Source: Bacteroidota bacterium (GTDB lineage: Bacteria > Bacteroidota > Bacteroidia > 2-12-FULL-35-15). From it: 64,000 nucleotides of DNA. Both the position numbers and the translations under genes were made by a program. This document shows positions 1 through 12,032 of the stretch, one piece after another. How positions within the stretch are numbered: position 1 is the stretch's first letter; each line of letters begins with the position of its first letter. The notes below the pieces were generated by a model. That model was not told the DNA's origin and searched no databases. It saw nothing but the letters and a program-made list of their open reading frames with translations. The stretch spans positions 1 through 64,000 of the forward strand of contig JAQZBR010000005.1 in NCBI GenBank assembly GCA_029237775.1. The letters run 5' to 3'.

Positions 1-107
1 GTGCGCCACTCGTCAGCATCCATTGCTGGACCTGTTACCGTTCGACTTGCATGTATTAGGCCTGCCGCTAGCGTTCATCCTGAGCCAGGATCAAACTCTT
101 CATTGTA
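1..107 (-). rRNA. rrs: 16S ribosomal RNA, 5' end only
   Basis: The reverse complement contains the universal 16S start, AGAGTTTGATCCTGGCTCAG, followed by GATGAACGCTAGCGGCAGGC and the CATGCAAGTCGAACGG region. Only about the first 107 bases are present; the rest lies beyond the left edge. The 5' end is placed near 107 by comparison with the E. coli start (TGAAGAGTTTGATC). The choice of bases around GATGAACGCTAGCGGCAGGC is typical of Bacteroidota. Confidence 0.97.
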
Positions 108-313
108 AGTTTGATATGCTCTTCTTCATAAAAGAAAAATTATTTGTTTAGGATTTGTTTCTCAATATACTATTAGAACATAATAATATAAGGGATACTT
201 ATTATTTTTTTAACTTCACAATATTTTCAAAGAACTTATTTATATATACTCTTCTTGATTTCTCAAGACTATAAATTCAAGTTATAAAGAACTTCCCGGT
301 TTGTTTGGGGCGA
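108..313 (-). other. rRNA operon leader with boxA-like motifs
   Basis: This A/T-rich stretch lies between the 16S start and the nearest promoter. On the minus strand it holds two copies of GTTCTTT (complement of 229-235 and 286-292); the first continues as GTTCTTTGAAAATATTG. This resembles the boxA antitermination site of rRNA leaders (E. coli core GCTCTTTAAC). Role inferred from position and motif. Confidence 0.6.
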
Positions 314-344
314 CAAAAGTACTAATACTTTTTCAACCTGCAAA
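314..344 (-). promoter_or_regulatory. rRNA promoter P1 (nearest to 16S)
   Basis: On the minus strand TTTG (344-341), a 19-base spacer, then TACTTTTG (321-314). This fits the Bacteroidetes sigma-A consensus TTTG / TAnnTTTG. The predicted start is about 200 bases before 16S. Confidence 0.8.
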
Positions 345-416
345 CTTTTAATCAAAAAAATTAAAAATATTTTTTTCTGTTTAAAATCAAAAGAACGTTT
401 CTTTTTATCGGGGCGA

Positions 417-446
417 CAAAATTACTAATTATTTTTGATCTGCAAA
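417..446 (-). promoter_or_regulatory. rRNA promoter P2
   Basis: Minus strand: TTTG (446-443), 18-base spacer, TAATTTTG (424-417). Both elements match the Bacteroidetes consensus. It lies 103 bp upstream of P1. Confidence 0.78.
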
Positions 447-523
447 CTTTTTCAAAAGATTTTTTTTTATTTTTCTTTCGGTTAGACTTTTAAAGAACGC
501 TGCTTGTTTTATTAAGCGGGGTG

Positions 524-553
524 CAAAAGTACTAACTTTTTTTGATCTGCAAA
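524..553 (-). promoter_or_regulatory. rRNA promoter P3
   Basis: Minus strand: TTTG (553-550), 18-base spacer, TACTTTTG (531-524). It lies 107 bp upstream of P2. The predicted transcript starts with a short hairpin (CGCTTG ... CAAGC) and a boxA-like GTTCTTTAAAA (complement of 492-498). Confidence 0.8.
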
Positions 554-629
554 CTTTTTTAAAAGAATTTTTATTTTTTCTTTTCGGTTAGCTTTTTAAA
601 GAACGCTGCTTGTTTTATCAAGCGGGGTG

Positions 630-659
630 CAAAAGTACTAACTTTTTTTGATTTGCAAA
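630..659 (-). promoter_or_regulatory. rRNA promoter P4
   Basis: Minus strand: TTTG (659-656), 18-base spacer, TACTTTTG (637-630). It is almost identical to P3, lies 106 bp upstream of it, and is followed by the same hairpin and a GTTCTTTAAAA motif (complement of 598-604). Confidence 0.8.
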
Positions 660-734
660 CTTTTTTAAAGATTTTTTTTATTTTTCTTTAATCGGGTTGT
701 TTCAATGAACGTGTGCTTTGTTTTAAAGCGGGTG

Positions 735-765
735 CAAATGTACGTTGTTTCTTCATACGTGCAAG
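735..765 (-). promoter_or_regulatory. rRNA promoter P5 (distal)
   Basis: Minus strand: CTTG (765-762, one mismatch to TTTG), 19-base spacer, TACATTTG (742-735). It lies 105 bp upstream of P4 and is the outermost and least perfect member of the array. Confidence 0.65.
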
Positions 766-977
766 TGTTTTATCAATCTTTTTTTGCCAAAACCCCTAAT
801 TGCACTGATTTGCAGCATGATAATTTTCAATAAATGTTAACTTTGAAATTGCAGTATGGGTATTCTATTCTACAAATTGCTCTGCGTAATAGCATTAAAC
901 CTGTATAGGAACGGATTTTGAGGTGGTTTATTATATTAGAAGCATAAACATATATATATAGAGTAATACTTTCATTA

Positions 978-1862
978 ATGAATATTCCAAAAGGCAAACT
1001 TATATCAGTTGGTGGCAGTGAAGATAAAGGAACAGGGATAGATCCGCATTTCGCGCAGCATACGCATCTTAACTTTTTTGAATTCGGTATTTTAAAACGT
1101 ATCCTCTCTGAAATGAGGGGTATTGATTCTTATATTGAAGTTATAACCACCGCTTCACAGATTCCAGAAGAGGTCGGGGAAAACTATATACAAGCATTTG
1201 GAAAGCTTGGCTGCAGGAATGTAGGTATTCTTCACATAAAGAAAAGAGAAGATGCTCTCAACCAGGAATATTTAGAACGCATAAAGAAAGCTGACGGTGT
1301 TATGTTCACAGGTGGAAATCAATTGCGCCTGAGTATGATCTTTGGTGGGACTGAATTCCTGAAGATCCTTATTAAACGTTACAACGAAGAGAATTTTGTG
1401 ATTGCCGGAACGAGTGCTGGTGCCATGGCGATGAGCAATACAATGATCTATCAGGGAAGTAGCACGGGTGCTCTGTTAAAAGGAGAAGTAAAAATCACCA
1501 CCGGCCTAGCCTTATTAAAGAATGTGATTATAGACACTCATTTTGTGACGCGTGGCCGGTTCGGAAGACTTACACAAGCAGTAGCCGGAAATCCGGGTTG
1601 TATTGGAATAGGCCTTGGCGAGGACACGGGAGTGCTGATAACAAACGGGAATATAATGGAAGCCATTGGCTCCGGGCTCGTGCTTATATTTGACGGTCAT
1701 GATATAAAACATTCCAATATTGCGGATATTGAAGAAGGGCAACCTTTATCTATAGAACATATGGTTGTGCATATCATGGCAAAAGGAAATTACTATTATA
1801 TAAATGAACGTAAGTTCTATAACGAAATGAATACAACGGTAAGTGTTCAACAAAATCACTAA
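978..1862 (+). CDS. cphB: Cyanophycinase-like serine peptidase (family S51)
   Basis: The 294-residue protein fits cyanophycinase, which cuts the storage polymer multi-L-arginyl-poly-L-aspartate into beta-Asp-Arg dipeptides in the cytoplasm. The nucleophile elbow GTSAGA puts the catalytic serine at residue 146. The start KGKLISVGGSEDKG and the FTGGNQLRL segment (110-118) are family hallmarks, and the length is normal. There is no signal peptide. Family knowledge gives the function; the specific substrate is inference. Cyanophycin synthetase is often adjacent in other genomes but is not present here: upstream is the rRNA promoter array and downstream a convergent gene. A strong hairpin terminator follows at 1909. 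Confidence 0.87.
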   Translation: MNIPKGKLISVGGSEDKGTGIDPHFAQHTHLNFFEFGILKRILSEMRGIDSYIEVITTASQIPEEVGENYIQAFGKLGCRNVGILHIKKREDALNQEYLERIKKADGVMFTGGNQLRLSMIFGGTEFLKILIKRYNEENFVIAGTSAGAMAMSNTMIYQGSSTGALLKGEVKITTGLALLKNVIIDTHFVTRGRFGRLTQAVAGNPGCIGIGLGEDTGVLITNGNIMEAIGSGLVLIFDGHDIKHSNIADIEEGQPLSIEHMVVHIMAKGNYYYINERKFYNEMNTTVSVQQNH

Positions 1863-3274: not shown

Positions 3275-3691
3275 TTATGATTTGGATGGGTTAAGGACGC
3301 CCTGGATCGTACTCGTAACATGGGAAAAAACAAATTTATCTTTGAGTACAAACTCATGTGCACCAAGTTGCAATGTTTTGGCCGCCTCGTGCATATCCTT
3401 TTCGTCAGAGATTACAATCAGCGCGGCTTCTGGAACTACTCTTCTGATGTGTTCTATATTTTGTTTGCATGGAGCCTCCTCGTCACATTGAACATTTAGC
3501 AGGTAATCCAATACGACCACATCGGGCTGTATGCGATTAGCTTCTACTTCTTTAAAAAAATCATCGGGTGTTAAATAAGGCATTATGGAAGCTTTGATTT
3601 CAATTCCGCTAAGGATACTTTTCTTCAGCATTTCGGCAAAAAGCGGGTTGTTATCAAGAATTGCGATGGTTAAATGTTTAAATGACTCCAT
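3275..3691 (-). CDS. Stand-alone response-regulator receiver protein
   Basis: 138 residues covering one receiver (CheY-like) domain and no output domain. Asp62 in VVVLDYLLN is the expected phosphorylation site, Ser95 the switch Ser/Thr position, and Lys117 in FVLKD the conserved lysine. The acidic pocket has only one Asp (Asp13 in LDNN) where most receivers have two, which may change metal binding. A short Cys-containing insertion follows Asp62 (VQCDEEAPCKQ). It follows a second receiver gene by 7 bp, so the two are cotranscribed. The partner kinase is not in the window. Confidence 0.85.
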   Translation of the reverse strand: MESFKHLTIAILDNNPLFAEMLKKSILSGIEIKASIMPYLTPDDFFKEVEANRIQPDVVVLDYLLNVQCDEEAPCKQNIEHIRRVVPEAALIVISDEKDMHEAAKTLQLGAHEFVLKDKFVFSHVTSTIQGVLNPSKS

Positions 3692-3698
3692 TGTTTGA

Positions 3699-4187
3699 TC
3701 AGTTAGTTAATTGTAATACCAATAAAACAAACGTGCCCATAGTGGCAAAGGTAGCTGTAAATACCGCCAGGAATTTAGTCACCGGAAATTCCCAGACATA
3801 TTTAAAAGGCCTAATGATAGTGGTATCCAACAGTACACTTATTTTTCCCCAAGCATTATTATTTTTCACAACGAAGTTTTTAGCTCCAAGTCGAAAAGAT
3901 TCCACAGCCGTCCCCACGTCCTCGTTACCTGATAACATGATCACTTCGGTTCGGGGATTAAGTTCCTTAATTGTTTTCAGGATCTCATTCCCGTTTTTTC
4001 CCTGAAGAAAATAATCCAGGATAACCACATCAGTAAATTCATTGATATTTTTCAAACAGGTTTCCCCATCCTCAAAGGTTGAGATTCTGAGCTTATTACC
4101 GAACCTGCCCGAAAGGTATTGCCTTAGCGCTACTAACATTGACCTGTTATCGTCAACAATGTATAAATTGATTCCTTGCGTTTCCAT
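3699..4187 (-). CDS. Receiver protein with C-terminal membrane helix
   Basis: 162 residues. Residues 1-122 form a canonical receiver: Asp12/Asp13 pocket, phosphoacceptor Asp58 (VVILDYF), Ser86 and Lys108 (FVVKN). Instead of a DNA-binding output, the protein ends with a basic/aromatic linker and a hydrophobic helix at about 136-158 (VTKFLAVFTATFATMGTFVL). This should tether the receiver to the inner membrane, cytoplasmic side, with the helix as a C-terminal anchor. It is first in an operon with the soluble receiver at 3275. Function is unknown; a membrane-localised phosphate sink or docking protein is inference. Confidence 0.83.
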   Translation of the reverse strand: METQGINLYIVDDNRSMLVALRQYLSGRFGNKLRISTFEDGETCLKNINEFTDVVILDYFLQGKNGNEILKTIKELNPRTEVIMLSGNEDVGTAVESFRLGAKNFVVKNNNAWGKISVLLDTTIIRPFKYVWEFPVTKFLAVFTATFATMGTFVLLVLQLTN

Positions 4188-4352: not shown

Positions 4353-4721
4353 GGGGTCGTTACGGTTTTGACAGCGAGTGCGATTTTTATGTAAGCATGC
4401 CGTGTGTTGTGGATATGACACGTTAATCCTAATTCTCAAACTCTATAAATGGCGAGTCTAACTACGCTATGGCTGCTTAATACCAAGTATTAAGTGCCTT
4501 TGTTTCCGGGGAAGCGATGCTCTTCCGCGTCCCCGATGAAGCATCATAAATGATGAGCTGGTTGCAGGAAGCTTCGGCCTGCAATGAGATAAAGAAGCTA
4601 AGTAAGCCTTATGGTTTGTAGACCTACCTAAGCTTACCGACAATTAAAGTTTCTGCTAAGCATGTAGAAAGCATATTAATTCCTTGTTTGGACGAGGGTT
4701 CGAATCCCTCCGACTCCACTT
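4353..4721 (+). ncRNA. ssrA: Transfer-messenger RNA (tmRNA)
   Basis: The 5' end GGGGTCGTTACGGTTTTGAC and the 3' end GGTTCGAATCCCTCCGACTCC form the tRNA-like acceptor and T arm; GGGGTCG pairs with CGACTCC. The tag frame GGC GAG TCT AAC TAC GCT ATG GCT GCT TAA starts at 4451 and encodes GESNYAMAA. The CCA end is not encoded: after discriminator A4719 comes CT. The region 4490-4640 contains hairpins consistent with the pseudoknots. tmRNA rescues stalled ribosomes with SmpB; smpB is not in this window. Confidence 0.96.
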
Positions 4722-6353: not shown

Positions 6354-9300
6354 TTACTCAATAATCACCTTAGTCGTTTTCCTTTGTCTTTCAGTTATAA
6401 CATTCGTGAAATAGATTCCAGAAGAAACATTATCAAGCATTATTTTTTTCCTATAAATACCGTTGAAATTAACAAGCTTCTCTGAGTAAACTATTTTTCC
6501 AAGGATATTCATCACATTAATTTCAACGTCACTGTCCTCTACGAGATTAAAGCTTAGCGTAAATGATTTATTACTGCTTGGATTAGGAGATATATTAACA
6601 TTCAGATCAAGCGAAGACAATTCCTGAATGGATATTGGAAGATTAACGTTGATTGTATCCTTAGATGAACAACCTAATCCTTCAGTAACAATTACAAAAT
6701 ACTGACCTGAAGTTGTAACCGTTATACTTTGAGTTGTCTCACCGGTGCTCCACAAATAATTTGCTCCGGGATGTCCAGCGTCTATAACAAATGACGTAAC
6801 CGCAGTTAAAGTTGTGTCGGGACCAAGATCAACAACCGGTGGTGAAGCAAAAGTCACATGCACTGTATCACGATCCATACACGTGCCGTTGCTGACAGTC
6901 ACCCAATAATCACCTGTTGAACATGCATTTATGATTGCATAATTCTGTCCATTGCTCCATGAATAATAAGTAGCCCCCGGATAGCCAGCATTCAGAAGAA
7001 CGCATTGACACACTGTAGTATCTCTGCCAAGATTCACGTTAATATTATTATTTATGATATTAACATTGATCGTATCTGAACCCACGCAACCTCCCTGATC
7101 CGTTACCATCACATAATACGTTCCCGAGGTCGTTACATTTAGCGTCTGGCCAGTAGTTCCATTGCTCCACAAATAAGTTGCTCCTTGATTGCCTGCGTCA
7201 AGAATAAACGGGGGCGCCTGACAATTCATGAAGCTTGTATCATTACCGATATCAACTGTCAAAATACCAGGGATGACAATTACACTAATTGTGTCCGATC
7301 CGGTGCATCCGGTATTATCAGTTACTGTTACATGGTAGACTCCGGTTGAAGAAACGTTTATTGTTTGGGAAGTTTCATTTGTACTCCATAAATAATTTAA
7401 GCCTTGATTCATTGCATCCAGTATAATTGAACCCTGGCATAATGCCACAGTAGTATCAGTCCCAAGATCAACAGAGATAATAGCAGGATTAACGGTAATA
7501 TTTATAGTGTCTGTTACCGAGCAACCAAATTCATTTGTTACAGTCACATAATAGTTACCTGTGCCAGTTATATTAATAGATTGGGTGGATTCCGATGTGC
7601 TCCATAAATAAGACAATCCGGGGTTACCTGCATCAAGTGTAATTTGTCCCTGACAGAATACCATTGTGGTATCATTACCAAGATCAACGATCGGAGGAAC
7701 ATTGCTGTTTACAACGACAGAATCACTGGCACTGCAACCATTCAACGGGTTTGTTACTGTAAGCACATATGTTCCTGTTGCGTTGACATATATATCCAGG
7801 GAATCTGTCGCAGTTAAAATGTTTCCGTTATTTGTGTTCCAAATCATAATTCCGGAAGCATTTCCTTGCAGCATTACTGAATCGATACCACATCCGATGA
7901 CAGTGTCTAATCCTGCAAAAGCCATAGGCAGTGCTGTATCGGCTATTACGTTCACTGTATCTGAAGCACGGCAGCCATTTACAGGGTCGATAACATTGAA
8001 TATATATGAATCCGGAGTGCTTATCAGAACAAAAATCCCCGAAGCAATTGTATCGTCCGCTGAGTTGGTCCAGTACATTATCGCATTTTGAGTTGAAGCA
8101 GTTCCTAACAGTGGTAGTAATGTTACCTGACAATTAAGTGTAGCATCCTGACCGCCATCTGCAACCGGTGAATTTGTATTTGAAGAAATATGCAGAGAAT
8201 CTAAAGCAGTACATCCATTAACCGGATTGGTGACCGTTAACACATAATCGCCTTCCGCGCTAATAACCGGATTTAGCGAAGTGTTGCCCGAAACAATATT
8301 CCCATTGATTGTAGACCATAAATAATTTACACCGGAAACAGCAGCTATACCATTTAACGTTATTTGCGTAACAGTGCAATTCAATATGCTATCGATACCT
8401 GCTTCAACAACGGGAGGATCATTATCTAAAGTTATAAGAAGAGAGTCAGAAGAGGAACAGCCGTTCACCATATCGGTAACAGTGAAAACATATGTTCCAC
8501 CGAGAGTTACCGTTGCATTTAATGAATCAGATCCTGAAATAATATTACCATCAATTGTTGTCCAGCTAAATGAGGTATTCGCTGTTGATGACGTTCCGCT
8601 GATGGTAAGGATTGGATTGGTGCAATTAATAATTGTATCGCTACTCACCATCACATTCGGCAAGATATTATTTAAATATACGGACGCTGTGTCTGAGCTA
8701 CTGCAACCATTGATCGTATCCGTAACAATGAGCACATACTCCCCTACTGCATTAACAGAAGGCGTAGCAGTTTCAGGCCCCAATAAAATATTTCCATTTA
8801 AGGTCGTCCAGCTGAAACTTACATCAGAAGTTGATGAGGAACCGTTCAACATAACTGCGTCAACGATGCATGTAAGGTTGAAATCAGCTCCGGCATTCAC
8901 CTGGGGAATTGTGTTATTTAAATTCACTTCAGTAATATCAGATGATTGACATCCATTGATTGTATCAGTTACCGTAAGAAAATAAGTTCCCGGCTCGTCA
9001 ATTAATGGTGACAATGAAGCATTACCACTTACAATGTTCCCGTCAAGTGTAGTCCAACTGTAAATAGTATTTGAAGTTGTGCTAGACCCGGAAAGCATTA
9101 AGGATGTAACAGAACAGTTAAGCACCATTGATGCACCGGCATCAACATCCGGAGAAACTATATTCTGGTAAACATTTGCGGAATCCTGTGCAGAGCAACC
9201 GTTTACAGGATTCTTCACCGTGAGAATATACGTTCCAGGAATCTGAACAACAGGATTAGCGGTATTCGCACCGGAAAATATAATTCCACCGTTGGAGGCG

Positions 9301-12032
9301 GTCCAGGTAAAAATTGCATTTGGAACTGAAGATGTACCGTTTAATGTGGCAGAAGTGAGAGTGCAAGTCAGCGTTGTATCATTCCCTGCACTGACATCCG
9401 GAAGAGCCATATTTGACATCACTGTGACTGTATCTGAAGCAGAACATCCATTAATCGAATCAATAACAGAAAGGAAATAATCACCTGCAAGATCTACCGT
9501 AGGATTAGTCGTATTACCTCCGGAAACTATATTACCAAGATTAGTTGTCCAGCTGAATGAGGTTTGAAGCGTAGTTGACGATCCGGCCAACATCACTGAA
9601 GTATGATAACAATTAATAACCGAATCTACGTTTGCGTTTACATCGGGAAGTGTATTGTTTAAAAATATCTGAACAGTGTCAGAAGATGTACATCCGTTTA
9701 CAGTATCAGTTACAGTAAGAACATATGCACCAGATGCATCTATTGTAGGAAAAGAAGTTGACGTTCCTGCAGAAATATTTCCATTTGTCGTATTCCATAA
9801 GAATGTTGATGAAGGAGTCGCAGACATCCCATTTAAAACCAAGGAAGTAACAGAACATGTTAAAGTGCTGTCCCTCCCAGCATTTACATCAGGAGAAGTT
9901 AAGTTTAGAACCACGTCTGTAATGTCCATTGACTGACAACCATTAAGCGTGTCTGTGACAGTGAGCATATATGTACCCGGCTGATCCACCAGCGGTGTAA
10001 GAGAATTGGATCCGCTCACTATGTTTCCATCAAGTGTTATCCAGCTATATATTGAATTAGAAGTAGTTGTGGAACCGCTTAGATTGACCGAGGCTACTAT
10101 ACAATTCAAAATTTTTCCACTACCTGCCTGGGCATCAGGGGCTGTAACATTTTGATAAACATTCACCGAATCCTGCGCAGTGCAACCGTTTAACGGATTT
10201 TTAACAGTTAGAACATAGGTACCCGGAATTTGTACAACAGGATTAGGTGAATTACTTCCTGAATAAATTACACCTCCGTTAGTCGCTACCCATTGGTATA
10301 TCGCACCTCTTGTTGAAGACACCCCTGTCAGAGAAATTTGTGTAACCGTACAGGTCAATGTAGTATCATTCCCTGCCTCGACATCCGGTGCGACAAGATT
10401 CGCTATTACCATCACCGTATCAGATGCAGTGCATCCGTTTATTGAATCTGTAACTGTTAAATAATAGTTGCCTGCTGCATTCACCTCCGGCATAGAAGTG
10501 GCAGATCCTGAAACAATATTTCCTGAAATTGATGACCAATTGAAGGCCGTATGTTCGGTAGAAGATGATCCTGTCAGATAAACAGAAGTATGATAACAAT
10601 TGATCATTGAATCGACACTTGCATTCACGTCAGGAGCCGTGAGGTTTAAATTAACACTTACGGTATCTTTTGCACTGCAACCATTAACAGGATCTGTTAC
10701 AGTAAGAATATAAGATCCCTGTGCATTAACAGTCGGTGTCGCTGTTGCACCACCTGCAGTTATATTTCCTCCTGAAGTTGTCCATAAATATCCAGCACCT
10801 CCTGTAGTGGACGAACCATTTAATATTACTGCGGTTGTAACACAGTTCAGGGTTTTATCATTACCGGCCGAAGCATTAGGCGGAGAGTTATTAAGATTTA
10901 CAATCGCGGTATCTTTTGCGGTGCAGCCATTAACCGGGTTAGTAACAGTTAAAATATATGTCCCTGCCGCATTTACCGTAGGTGTGGCTGTTGTTTTACC
11001 TGATACGAAATTCCCGGTTGCGGACGTCCAGTTATAAGAAACACCTGAAGTACTTGAAGAACCATTAAGCTGAACTGAAGTAACGACACAATTCAGAGTC
11101 TTATCAGCTCCGGCACTAGCATTTGGAACTGTTGTATTAACTGTGACCTGTGCTGTATCTCTTGAAATACAGCCTGCTGTGCTTGTCACAGTAAGCACAT
11201 ATGTTCCTGCTGCATTGACAGATGGCGTAGCTGTTCCTGCTCCTGAAACGAAATTTCCGCCAAGGGTTGTCCAGCTAAAAGTAGCGCCACCTGTTGAAGA
11301 CGACCCGCTCAGCGTCACAGCAGTTGCAGTGCATGTTAACACCTTGTCCGGCCCGGCATTTGCATTTGGAAGAGCATTTCTTGTGATAACTACATCATCG
11401 GAACTGGTACAGCTTCCAACTGAAATTGTCCATCTGAAAGTATTTGCTCCTATACCTAAGCCGGTAATTCCGGAAGTTGGTGACGTTGGTGTTGTCACTG
11501 TTCCGCTACCACTTATTAATGTCCATACTCCACCACCTACTGAAGGGGTGTTTCCTGCTAAATTTGCTGTTGTTGAATTACAGAAGGCCTGATCCGGACC
11601 GGCAGCAGAAGGTGTTGGTGCCTGATTTACTGTAACAGCGACAGTGTTGGAAATATTCGATCCACCAGAGCATGATCCTGCACCATTTCCATTAATTACG
11701 CGCACATAATAATAGACAGTACCAAACGTATTTGTCGGGGGTACGTATGAAGATGATGTTGCTGAAGCAATAGGAGTTCCTGTTGTATTATTATTGACGC
11801 TATTGGAAAACCACTGATAAGAAGGAGACACAGGCATTCCGCTACCGCCTGATGCGATTCCGGAGGTAAGTGCTGAAGCTGCAGCATTCTGGCAAAGAGT
11901 CTGTGTTCCAGAGGCTGTCACTGACTGAACGCATCTTTGAGCCAAAGCCGAAAAATTAATGATAAACAAAAGAAAACCGATCGTAATTTTCTTTTTACTA
12001 TTAAATACGTCTGAGAGGAAAAGTGTCTTCAT
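6354..12032 (-). CDS. Giant Ig-like repeat cell-surface protein, T9SS cargo
   Basis: 1892 residues. Signal peptide 1-31 (IGFLLFIINFSALAQ). Then come two unlike Ig-type domains, fifteen copies of an ~85-residue repeat with the pattern P-[DN]-x-x-A-G-x-D-x-x-L-x-C ... L-x-G-x-S-S ... NGC-x-x-x-D, and five copies of a shorter ~70-residue repeat (DLGxDTT ... YLWSTGxTxQSI ... TDTI). Residues ~1808-1892 are a T9SS type-A sorting domain (NISPNPSSNKSFTLSFNL; SSGIYF; KTTKVIIE). Paired cysteines in each repeat could form disulfides. It is secreted across the outer membrane and probably acts as an adhesin or surface stalk; that role is inference. No catalytic domain is visible. Transcribed alone. Confidence 0.9.
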   Translation of the reverse strand: MKTLFLSDVFNSKKKITIGFLLFIINFSALAQRCVQSVTASGTQTLCQNAAASALTSGIASGGSGMPVSPSYQWFSNSVNNNTTGTPIASATSSSYVPPTNTFGTVYYYVRVINGNGAGSCSGGSNISNTVAVTVNQAPTPSAAGPDQAFCNSTTANLAGNTPSVGGGVWTLISGSGTVTTPTSPTSGITGLGIGANTFRWTISVGSCTSSDDVVITRNALPNANAGPDKVLTCTATAVTLSGSSSTGGATFSWTTLGGNFVSGAGTATPSVNAAGTYVLTVTSTAGCISRDTAQVTVNTTVPNASAGADKTLNCVVTSVQLNGSSSTSGVSYNWTSATGNFVSGKTTATPTVNAAGTYILTVTNPVNGCTAKDTAIVNLNNSPPNASAGNDKTLNCVTTAVILNGSSTTGGAGYLWTTSGGNITAGGATATPTVNAQGSYILTVTDPVNGCSAKDTVSVNLNLTAPDVNASVDSMINCYHTSVYLTGSSSTEHTAFNWSSISGNIVSGSATSMPEVNAAGNYYLTVTDSINGCTASDTVMVIANLVAPDVEAGNDTTLTCTVTQISLTGVSSTRGAIYQWVATNGGVIYSGSNSPNPVVQIPGTYVLTVKNPLNGCTAQDSVNVYQNVTAPDAQAGSGKILNCIVASVNLSGSTTTSNSIYSWITLDGNIVSGSNSLTPLVDQPGTYMLTVTDTLNGCQSMDITDVVLNLTSPDVNAGRDSTLTCSVTSLVLNGMSATPSSTFLWNTTNGNISAGTSTSFPTIDASGAYVLTVTDTVNGCTSSDTVQIFLNNTLPDVNANVDSVINCYHTSVMLAGSSTTLQTSFSWTTNLGNIVSGGNTTNPTVDLAGDYFLSVIDSINGCSASDTVTVMSNMALPDVSAGNDTTLTCTLTSATLNGTSSVPNAIFTWTASNGGIIFSGANTANPVVQIPGTYILTVKNPVNGCSAQDSANVYQNIVSPDVDAGASMVLNCSVTSLMLSGSSTTSNTIYSWTTLDGNIVSGNASLSPLIDEPGTYFLTVTDTINGCQSSDITEVNLNNTIPQVNAGADFNLTCIVDAVMLNGSSSTSDVSFSWTTLNGNILLGPETATPSVNAVGEYVLIVTDTINGCSSSDTASVYLNNILPNVMVSSDTIINCTNPILTISGTSSTANTSFSWTTIDGNIISGSDSLNATVTLGGTYVFTVTDMVNGCSSSDSLLITLDNDPPVVEAGIDSILNCTVTQITLNGIAAVSGVNYLWSTINGNIVSGNTSLNPVISAEGDYVLTVTNPVNGCTALDSLHISSNTNSPVADGGQDATLNCQVTLLPLLGTASTQNAIMYWTNSADDTIASGIFVLISTPDSYIFNVIDPVNGCRASDTVNVIADTALPMAFAGLDTVIGCGIDSVMLQGNASGIMIWNTNNGNILTATDSLDIYVNATGTYVLTVTNPLNGCSASDSVVVNSNVPPIVDLGNDTTMVFCQGQITLDAGNPGLSYLWSTSESTQSINITGTGNYYVTVTNEFGCSVTDTINITVNPAIISVDLGTDTTVALCQGSIILDAMNQGLNYLWSTNETSQTINVSSTGVYHVTVTDNTGCTGSDTISVIVIPGILTVDIGNDTSFMNCQAPPFILDAGNQGATYLWSNGTTGQTLNVTTSGTYYVMVTDQGGCVGSDTINVNIINNNINVNLGRDTTVCQCVLLNAGYPGATYYSWSNGQNYAIINACSTGDYWVTVSNGTCMDRDTVHVTFASPPVVDLGPDTTLTAVTSFVIDAGHPGANYLWSTGETTQSITVTTSGQYFVIVTEGLGCSSKDTINVNLPISIQELSSLDLNVNISPNPSSNKSFTLSFNLVEDSDVEINVMNILGKIVYSEKLVNFNGIYRKKIMLDNVSSGIYFTNVITERQRKTTKVIIE
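8600..10640 (-). repeat. Higher-order 987-bp duplication inside the Ig-repeat gene
   Basis: The marker INCYHTSV occurs at about 9604 and 10591, exactly 987 bp (329 codons) apart. The domains that follow in each copy match one for one: VVQIPGTY with GCxAQDSxNVYQN, then IYSWxTLDGNIVSG with NGCQSxDIT. This indicates that a block of four Ig-like domains was copied in tandem after the basic repeat existed. Confidence 0.75.

What the first reader, a model, noticed from the sequence alone, without database searches (positions are those of the whole stretch)
300..770. Five tandem rRNA promoters with boxA-like leaders at ~105 bp spacing
Five copies of the Bacteroidetes TTTG/TAnnTTTG promoter face the 16S gene, 103-107 bp apart (about ten helix turns). 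Each start region contains a hairpin-like GC word and GTTCTTT, resembling boxA. So every transcript, whichever promoter starts it, carries its own antitermination-like signal. The middle units are almost identical, indicating recent duplication. This would raise rRNA promoter capacity without adding operons.
Basis: partly seen in the sequence, partly recalled or inferred. Interest (0 to 1): 0.7.

Follow-up and report, generated by a model that had tools for sequence, protein, structure and literature searches.

The report
Repeated ribosomal-RNA promoters with boxA-like leaders
In front of its ribosomal-RNA genes this uncultured Bacteroidota bacterium has five near-copies of one on-switch, each followed by a short signal that may keep RNA polymerase going and mostly by a small RNA hairpin; similar rows of switches turn out to be common across its whole class.

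Summary
On the - strand, before a 16S gene cut by the contig edge, lie five TTG-N-TAnnTTTG promoters 105, 106, 107 and 103 bp apart; shuffling gives 0.03. Each is followed by GTTC(T/A)TT, four of five also by a short predicted hairpin. Corrections: the distal unit has CTTG and GTTCATT; the unit at 424 lacks the hairpin; the near-identical middle units are not recent, as at least one other species shares them. Nineteen loci of the genus carry 65 units; GTTC sits 17-28 nt after the -7 box in 61 of 65 (2 expected). Class-wide, 26 of 33 sampled families have two or more promoter matches before 16S (145 found, 3.9 expected), mostly 85-125 bp apart. GTTCTTT also stands before 23S without a promoter, where E. 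coli has its second boxA. But every transcript crosses a conserved leader boxA, so the extra copies are not needed merely to give each transcript one; and one relative has two array loci, which speaks against arrays replacing operons. Best reading: promoter-plus-boxA cassettes that load antitermination factors right after initiation. No start site or factor binding is measured. A new variant of tandem rRNA promoters.

The parts
1..106 (-). 5' end of 16S rRNA gene, cut by the contig edge
   Evidence: Rfam RF00177, 68.9 bits
735..765 (-). Promoter 1 (distal): -33 CTTG (765-762), -7 TACATTTG (742-735)
715..729 (-). Predicted hairpin GCTTT-AAAAC-AAAGC of unit 1
   Evidence: z -1.40
704..710 (-). 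boxA-like GTTCATT of unit 1
630..659 (-). Promoter 2: TTTG (659-656), TACTTTTG (637-630)
608..623 (-). Predicted hairpin GCTTG-ATAAAA-CAAGC of unit 2
   Evidence: (z -1.99)
598..604 (-). boxA-like GTTCTTT of unit 2
524..553 (-). Promoter 3: TTTG (553-550), TACTTTTG (531-524)
502..517 (-). Predicted hairpin GCTT-N8-AAGC of unit 3
   Evidence: z -0.15
492..498 (-). boxA-like GTTCTTT of unit 3
417..446 (-). Promoter 4: TTTG (446-443), TAATTTTG (424-417); no hairpin before its boxA-like word
390..396 (-). boxA-like GTTCTTT of unit 4
314..344 (-). Promoter 5 (proximal): TTTG (344-341), TACTTTTG (321-314)
295..309 (-). Predicted hairpin CCC-N9-GGG of unit 5
   Evidence: z -0.07
286..292 (-). boxA-like GTTCTTT of unit 5
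219..237 (-). Conserved leader boxA AAGTTCTTTGAAAATATTG, crossed by every transcript whichever promoter starts it; GTTCTTTGAAAATATTG is present in all 19 genus loci read

Best explanation
The region is an array of five sigma-ABfr (Bacteroidota primary sigma) promoters for an rRNA operon. Each promoter carries, about 20-25 nt downstream of its -7 box, a boxA-like GTTC(T/A)TT, in four of five preceded by a short hairpin, so the duplicated unit is a 'promoter + hairpin + boxA' cassette of about 100 bp. Shown from sequence: promoter matches, cassette order, conservation, class-wide recurrence of tandem promoters. Inferred: that all promoters fire; that boxA recruits NusB-S10 almost as soon as RNA polymerase leaves the promoter, so that polymerases from upstream promoters are protected before they cross up to 640 nt of untranslated AT-rich DNA and the next promoters; and that several promoters raise the loading rate of the operon. 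The spacing is most simply the length of the cassette (A-tract, core promoter, hairpin, boxA).
For: Promoters: 5 against 0.032 by shuffling. Genus: GTTC 17-28 nt after the -7 box in 61 of 65 units of 19 loci, 2.0 expected. In 46 non-proximal units GTTCWTT is kept (position +5 T in 0.98) while positions +10 to +17 carry only 0.1-0.33 bits (the anchor itself favours GTTC, and two rows were anchored a few bases off). Class: 145 promoter matches in 70 loci of 33 families, 3.85 expected, 4 on the opposite strand; 49 of 77 adjacent spacings are 85-125 bp, 14% expected. Class: GTTC starts 20-29 nt after the -7 box in 48 of 145, against 7-19 in the other nine bins. Hairpin: class segments -3.64 against -1.21 kcal/mol for mononucleotide shuffles, control segments -0.98 against -0.78; cognate halves fold better than all 300 swaps in genus, class and one-per-family sets. 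GTTCTTTGACATATTG precedes 23S in 4 of 4 operons read with no TAnnTTTG in the 200 nt upstream, as boxA precedes 16S and 23S in E. coli and many species (PMC4807359, passages); a hairpin is predicted just before it in 4 of 4. NusB and Rho are encoded.
Against: No start site, promoter activity or NusB binding is measured. The leader boxA already serves every transcript. PMC4807359 (passages) argues that E. coli BoxA acts mainly in rRNA maturation, not antitermination. boxA-like words are not universal: in the class one lies 12-52 nt after the -7 box in 40 of 77 non-proximal and 27 of 68 proximal promoters, and in family f31 after 0 of 3 non-proximal ones. The hairpin is absent from the 424 unit; single units reach p 0.05 in 36 of 60 (genus) and 38 of 78 (class; control 7 of 78); the hairpins before the 23S boxA are singly weak (z 0.02, -0.31, -1.60, -2.31). 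In E. coli the boxes lie after P2 only (PMC10250234, passages). The genus can have two array loci (G013).
Confidence: 0.6

Rival explanations
1. Several real tandem promoters, but the GTTC words and hairpins are passengers: the duplicated segment simply included them, and only the leader boxA works.
For: The leader boxA is identical over 17 nt in all 19 genus loci read; middle units are clearly tandem duplicates; some families have tandem promoters without GTTC.
Against: GTTC kept in 61 of 65 units although proximal and distal units are only 55-57% identical within each of three genomes; the sequence just after it has decayed; hairpin halves co-vary.
Confidence: 0.2
2. GTTC(T/A)TT and the CCC hairpin are an initial-transcribed or 5'-end element (5'-end stability, start-site choice, or a DNA site for a regulator), not boxA.
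For: Two C positions shortly after the -7 box are invariant in 46 of 46 non-proximal units; nt 3-8 open a pair in 131 of 144 class segments, 87 expected; in some families GTTC seems to lie inside the hairpin loop (by eye).
Against: GTTCTTT with a predicted hairpin stands before 23S with no promoter.
Confidence: 0.15
3. Only the proximal promoter is active; the others are decayed duplicates or polymerase-holding decoys.
For: No expression data; the distal unit has a weaker -33 (CTTG).
Against: TA and TTTG of the -7 box are invariant in 46 non-proximal units, though units were chosen by that consensus; two or more matches in 26 of 33 families.
Confidence: 0.05

Closest known systems
E. coli rrn P1-P2 tandem promoters with boxB-boxA-boxC leader
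   Same: Tandem rRNA promoters about 120 bp apart (PMC4696680, passages); boxB stem-loop then boxA in the 16S leader, and a second set before 23S (PMC10250234 and PMC4807359, passages).
   Different: Two promoters of sigma-70 type and one leader boxA placed after P2; here five promoters of another type, each with its own boxA-like word.
Mycobacterium rrnA hypervariable multiple promoter region
   Same: Up to five promoters for one rRNA operon (M. chelonae), boxA in the leader; start points 103 bp apart in M. kumamotonense (PMC10218544, passages).
   Different: Sequences and sigma factor differ (recalled); the passages put boxA in the CL2 motif rather than after each promoter.
Bacteroides thetaiotaomicron 16S promoter pair (Mastropaolo 2009)
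   Same: Same -7/-33 type, two promoters about 150 bp apart (recalled; paper not held; cited as a B. theta 16S promoter with -7 and -33 consensus in PMC13304314, passage).
   Different: Two promoters; I recall no per-promoter boxA, but could not read the paper.

Membership tests
sigma-ABfr promoter (Bacteroidota) | TAnnTTTG at -7 and TTTG near -33 | tested here: met
   5 of 5 TAnnTTTG; TTTG in 4, CTTG in 1; consensus from PMC7366714 (passages)
sigma-ABfr promoter (Bacteroidota) | Transcription starts about 7 nt past the -7 box centre | not testable with these tools
   No RNA data
[quoted passage not shown]
   GTTCTTTGAAAATATTG before 16S and GTTCTTTGACATATTG before 23S in 4 of 4 operons read
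rRNA boxA | Hairpin (boxB-like) 5' of boxA | tested here: inconclusive
   Present as a set, singly weak, absent in the 424 unit
rRNA boxA | Binds NusB-S10 and confers antitermination | not testable with these tools
   NusB and Rho genes are present; binding not measured
Tandem rRNA promoters | Two or more co-directional promoters before one rRNA operon | tested here: met
   Five consensus matches; activity not tested

The most novel reading that the evidence does not exclude
In Bacteroidia, rRNA operons are commonly driven by amplifiable 'promoter + hairpin + boxA' cassettes of about 100 bp, so that antitermination is loaded at initiation by each promoter rather than once in the leader; cassettes are gained and lost repeatedly and tune rRNA output as a dial separate from operon number.
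Probability: 0.35. Interest if true: 0.65.

Novelty: new variant of a known kind. Interest (0 to 1): 0.5.

Why it matters
rRNA promoter regulation is known chiefly from E. coli, B. subtilis and mycobacteria (recalled). If each promoter brings its own boxA, the antitermination complex would be assembled at initiation, and promoter number would be a growth-rate dial beside operon number, testable in cultivable Bacteroidia.

Tried and rejected
Recent duplication: rejected for the 637/531 pair, which predates the split from G007. Helical phasing: clustering near 104 bp gives Rayleigh p below 0.12 at all five periods tried in each of three sets, so 10.5 is not special; family medians show no phase. 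Assembly artefact: rejected, since separate MAGs share the five-unit layout and contigs of 0.4-6.4 Mb from 17 other genomes have two or more matches in 16 of 20 loci, four in L177; one match in L165 and two in L175 look spurious. G005 has array pieces on two contig ends (different units, perhaps one broken array); the second G033 match lies where one search finds no array promoter. Promoter number against operon number: not carried out, because one search scored at most two candidates per genome. Intrinsic terminators: one weak hit, the 623-608 hairpin, 0.4 expected; sigma-70 promoters: 6, 4.1 expected.

Rows dropped before counts. Genus: 11 lone TAnnTTTG matches outside the array register; the L014 proximal unit was kept by hand with TAATTTCG; L016, L022 and L023 have no 16S start word, the G013 and G005:C19 units are not in the 65. 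Class: 83 loci taken (23, 60), from 75 of the 123 matching genomes outside the genus; 70 counted. Dropped: 7 with under 700 nt upstream, 5 second operons, 1 without the 16S word; three second operons (L112, L127, L148) were kept. Three spacings of 20-29 bp are overlapping, probably spurious matches left in the counts; without them f59 would fall below two matches and f20 below three.

Literature searches. None listed a held paper that I recognised as describing boxA after every rRNA promoter or multi-promoter rRNA arrays in Bacteroidota; most subscription papers are not held.

Full report
What is there. The window is the start of contig C4 of an uncultured Bacteroidota genome (4.08 Mb, 12 contigs). 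The contig begins inside a 16S gene on the - strand (106-1). Reading the - strand, five matches to the Bacteroidota promoter TTG-N16-21-TAnnTTTG precede it, 644, 539, 433, 326 and 223 nt before GAGTTTGATC. Shuffled sequence gives 0.032. Ten such matches exist in the 64 kb on both strands, and only these five are followed by GTTC at 14-36 nt.

The unit. Each unit is an A/T tract, -33, -7, a C-rich start, usually a hairpin, then GTTC(T/A)TT. The distal unit has CTTG and GTTCATT. The unit at 424 has no hairpin before GTTC. After the last unit the leader holds a further GTTCTTTGAAAATATTG (from 235), about 136 nt before GAGTTTGATC and identical in all 19 genus loci read; E. coli boxA lies at -147 to -133 (PMC10250234, passages).

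Relatives of the genus. Among held genomes at least 80% (family, 32 genomes) or 90% complete (order, 26) only this one genus appears. Of 36 genomes, 30 matched; 19 loci show at least one unit before a 16S start (18, L004). Eighteen carry two to five units; L015 shows one, where its contig ends. Of 17 named stretches matched by a proximal-promoter pattern, 12 show an array before a 16S start, all MAGs labelled Bacteroidetes bacterium. GTTC lies 17-28 nt after the -7 box in 61 of 65 units, 2.0 expected. In a unit tree (no support values) proximal units group together; the 637 unit groups with its G007 counterpart (97%) rather than with its neighbour (92%), so that duplication predates their split; the G015 pair groups with itself. 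G007 and G015 share the neighbouring Peptidase_S51 gene.

Operon number. Complete 16S-tRNA-tRNA-23S-5S operons are read in G001 and G005, incomplete stretches of them in G022 and G015. This genome shows one leader-array locus; a full 16S and a 23S were not found in it. G013 has two contig ends that share their last 127 bp, array sequence, with different flanks; one has a second, distal unit 104 bp upstream, the other no consensus match there. So at least one species probably has two operons with different unit numbers, and 'capacity without more operons' is not shown.

The class. In 70 loci from 33 families there are 145 promoter matches before 16S, 3.85 expected by shuffling and 4 on the opposite strand; 26 of 33 families have a locus with two or more, 11 with three or more, 6 with four or more (one family in each of the first two counts rests on overlapping matches). 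Spacings cluster at 85-125 bp (49 of 77; random placement 14%). GTTC peaks 20-29 nt after the -7 box (48 of 145; other bins 7-19). By eye, near-identical neighbouring units in L133, L136 and L177 suggest separate duplications in other families.

Hairpin. Segments between the -7 box and GTTC fold better than mononucleotide shuffles in genus (-3.46 against -0.93; 36 of 60 at p at most 0.05) and class (-3.64 against -1.21; 38 of 78; control segments 7 of 78). Swapping 3' halves between units weakens them in all 300 trials for genus, class and 25 one-per-family segments. Relatedness is not fully removed. Window segments taken alone are weak against dinucleotide shuffles.

Why boxA. In 4 of 4 operons read, GTTCTTTGACATATTG stands just before 23S without a promoter, with a predicted but singly weak hairpin before it (z 0.02 to -2.31). 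Two boxA copies, before 16S and 23S, are the pattern of E. coli and many species (PMC4807359, passages). NusB and Rho are encoded.

Function. All transcripts cross the leader boxA, so the unit copies cannot be explained by a need for one boxA per transcript. I infer that they matter early: a polymerase from the first promoter has about 640 nt of untranslated AT-rich DNA and four more promoters ahead. An alternative is that boxA works in rRNA maturation, as argued for E. coli (PMC4807359), in which case upstream copies would be of little use. This is untested.

Novelty. Tandem rRNA promoters are known (E. coli two, mycobacteria up to five, B. theta two by recall). A boxA-like word with hairpin after each promoter, and class-wide arrays, I did not find described in the held library (searches listed under Tried and rejected).

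Noticed in passing
window 978-1859 +: Peptidase family S51 protein (cyanophycinase-like by recall) directly upstream of the array; also beside it in G007 and G015, not detected in the short flanks of the other genus loci searched.
   Followed up: partly
L187 and L188 (G013 contig ends): Two array-bearing loci in one relative, apparently with different unit numbers.
   Followed up: partly
window 4353-4721 +: tmRNA gene (Rfam).
   Followed up: no
window 6354-12032 -: 1892-aa protein of many Ig/PKD-like repeats with a Por_Secre_tail sorting domain.
   Followed up: no
window 3275-4187 -: Two adjacent response-regulator receiver proteins; the one at 3275-3691 scores below the Pfam cut-off.
   Followed up: no
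L092, L099, L109, L084, L085: In some families GTTCTTT seems to lie inside the loop of the 5' hairpin rather than after it (seen by eye in the sequences).
   Followed up: partly
L158-L161, 16S-23S spacer: The predicted hairpin before the 23S boxA differs in sequence between species while keeping complementary arms.
   Followed up: partly
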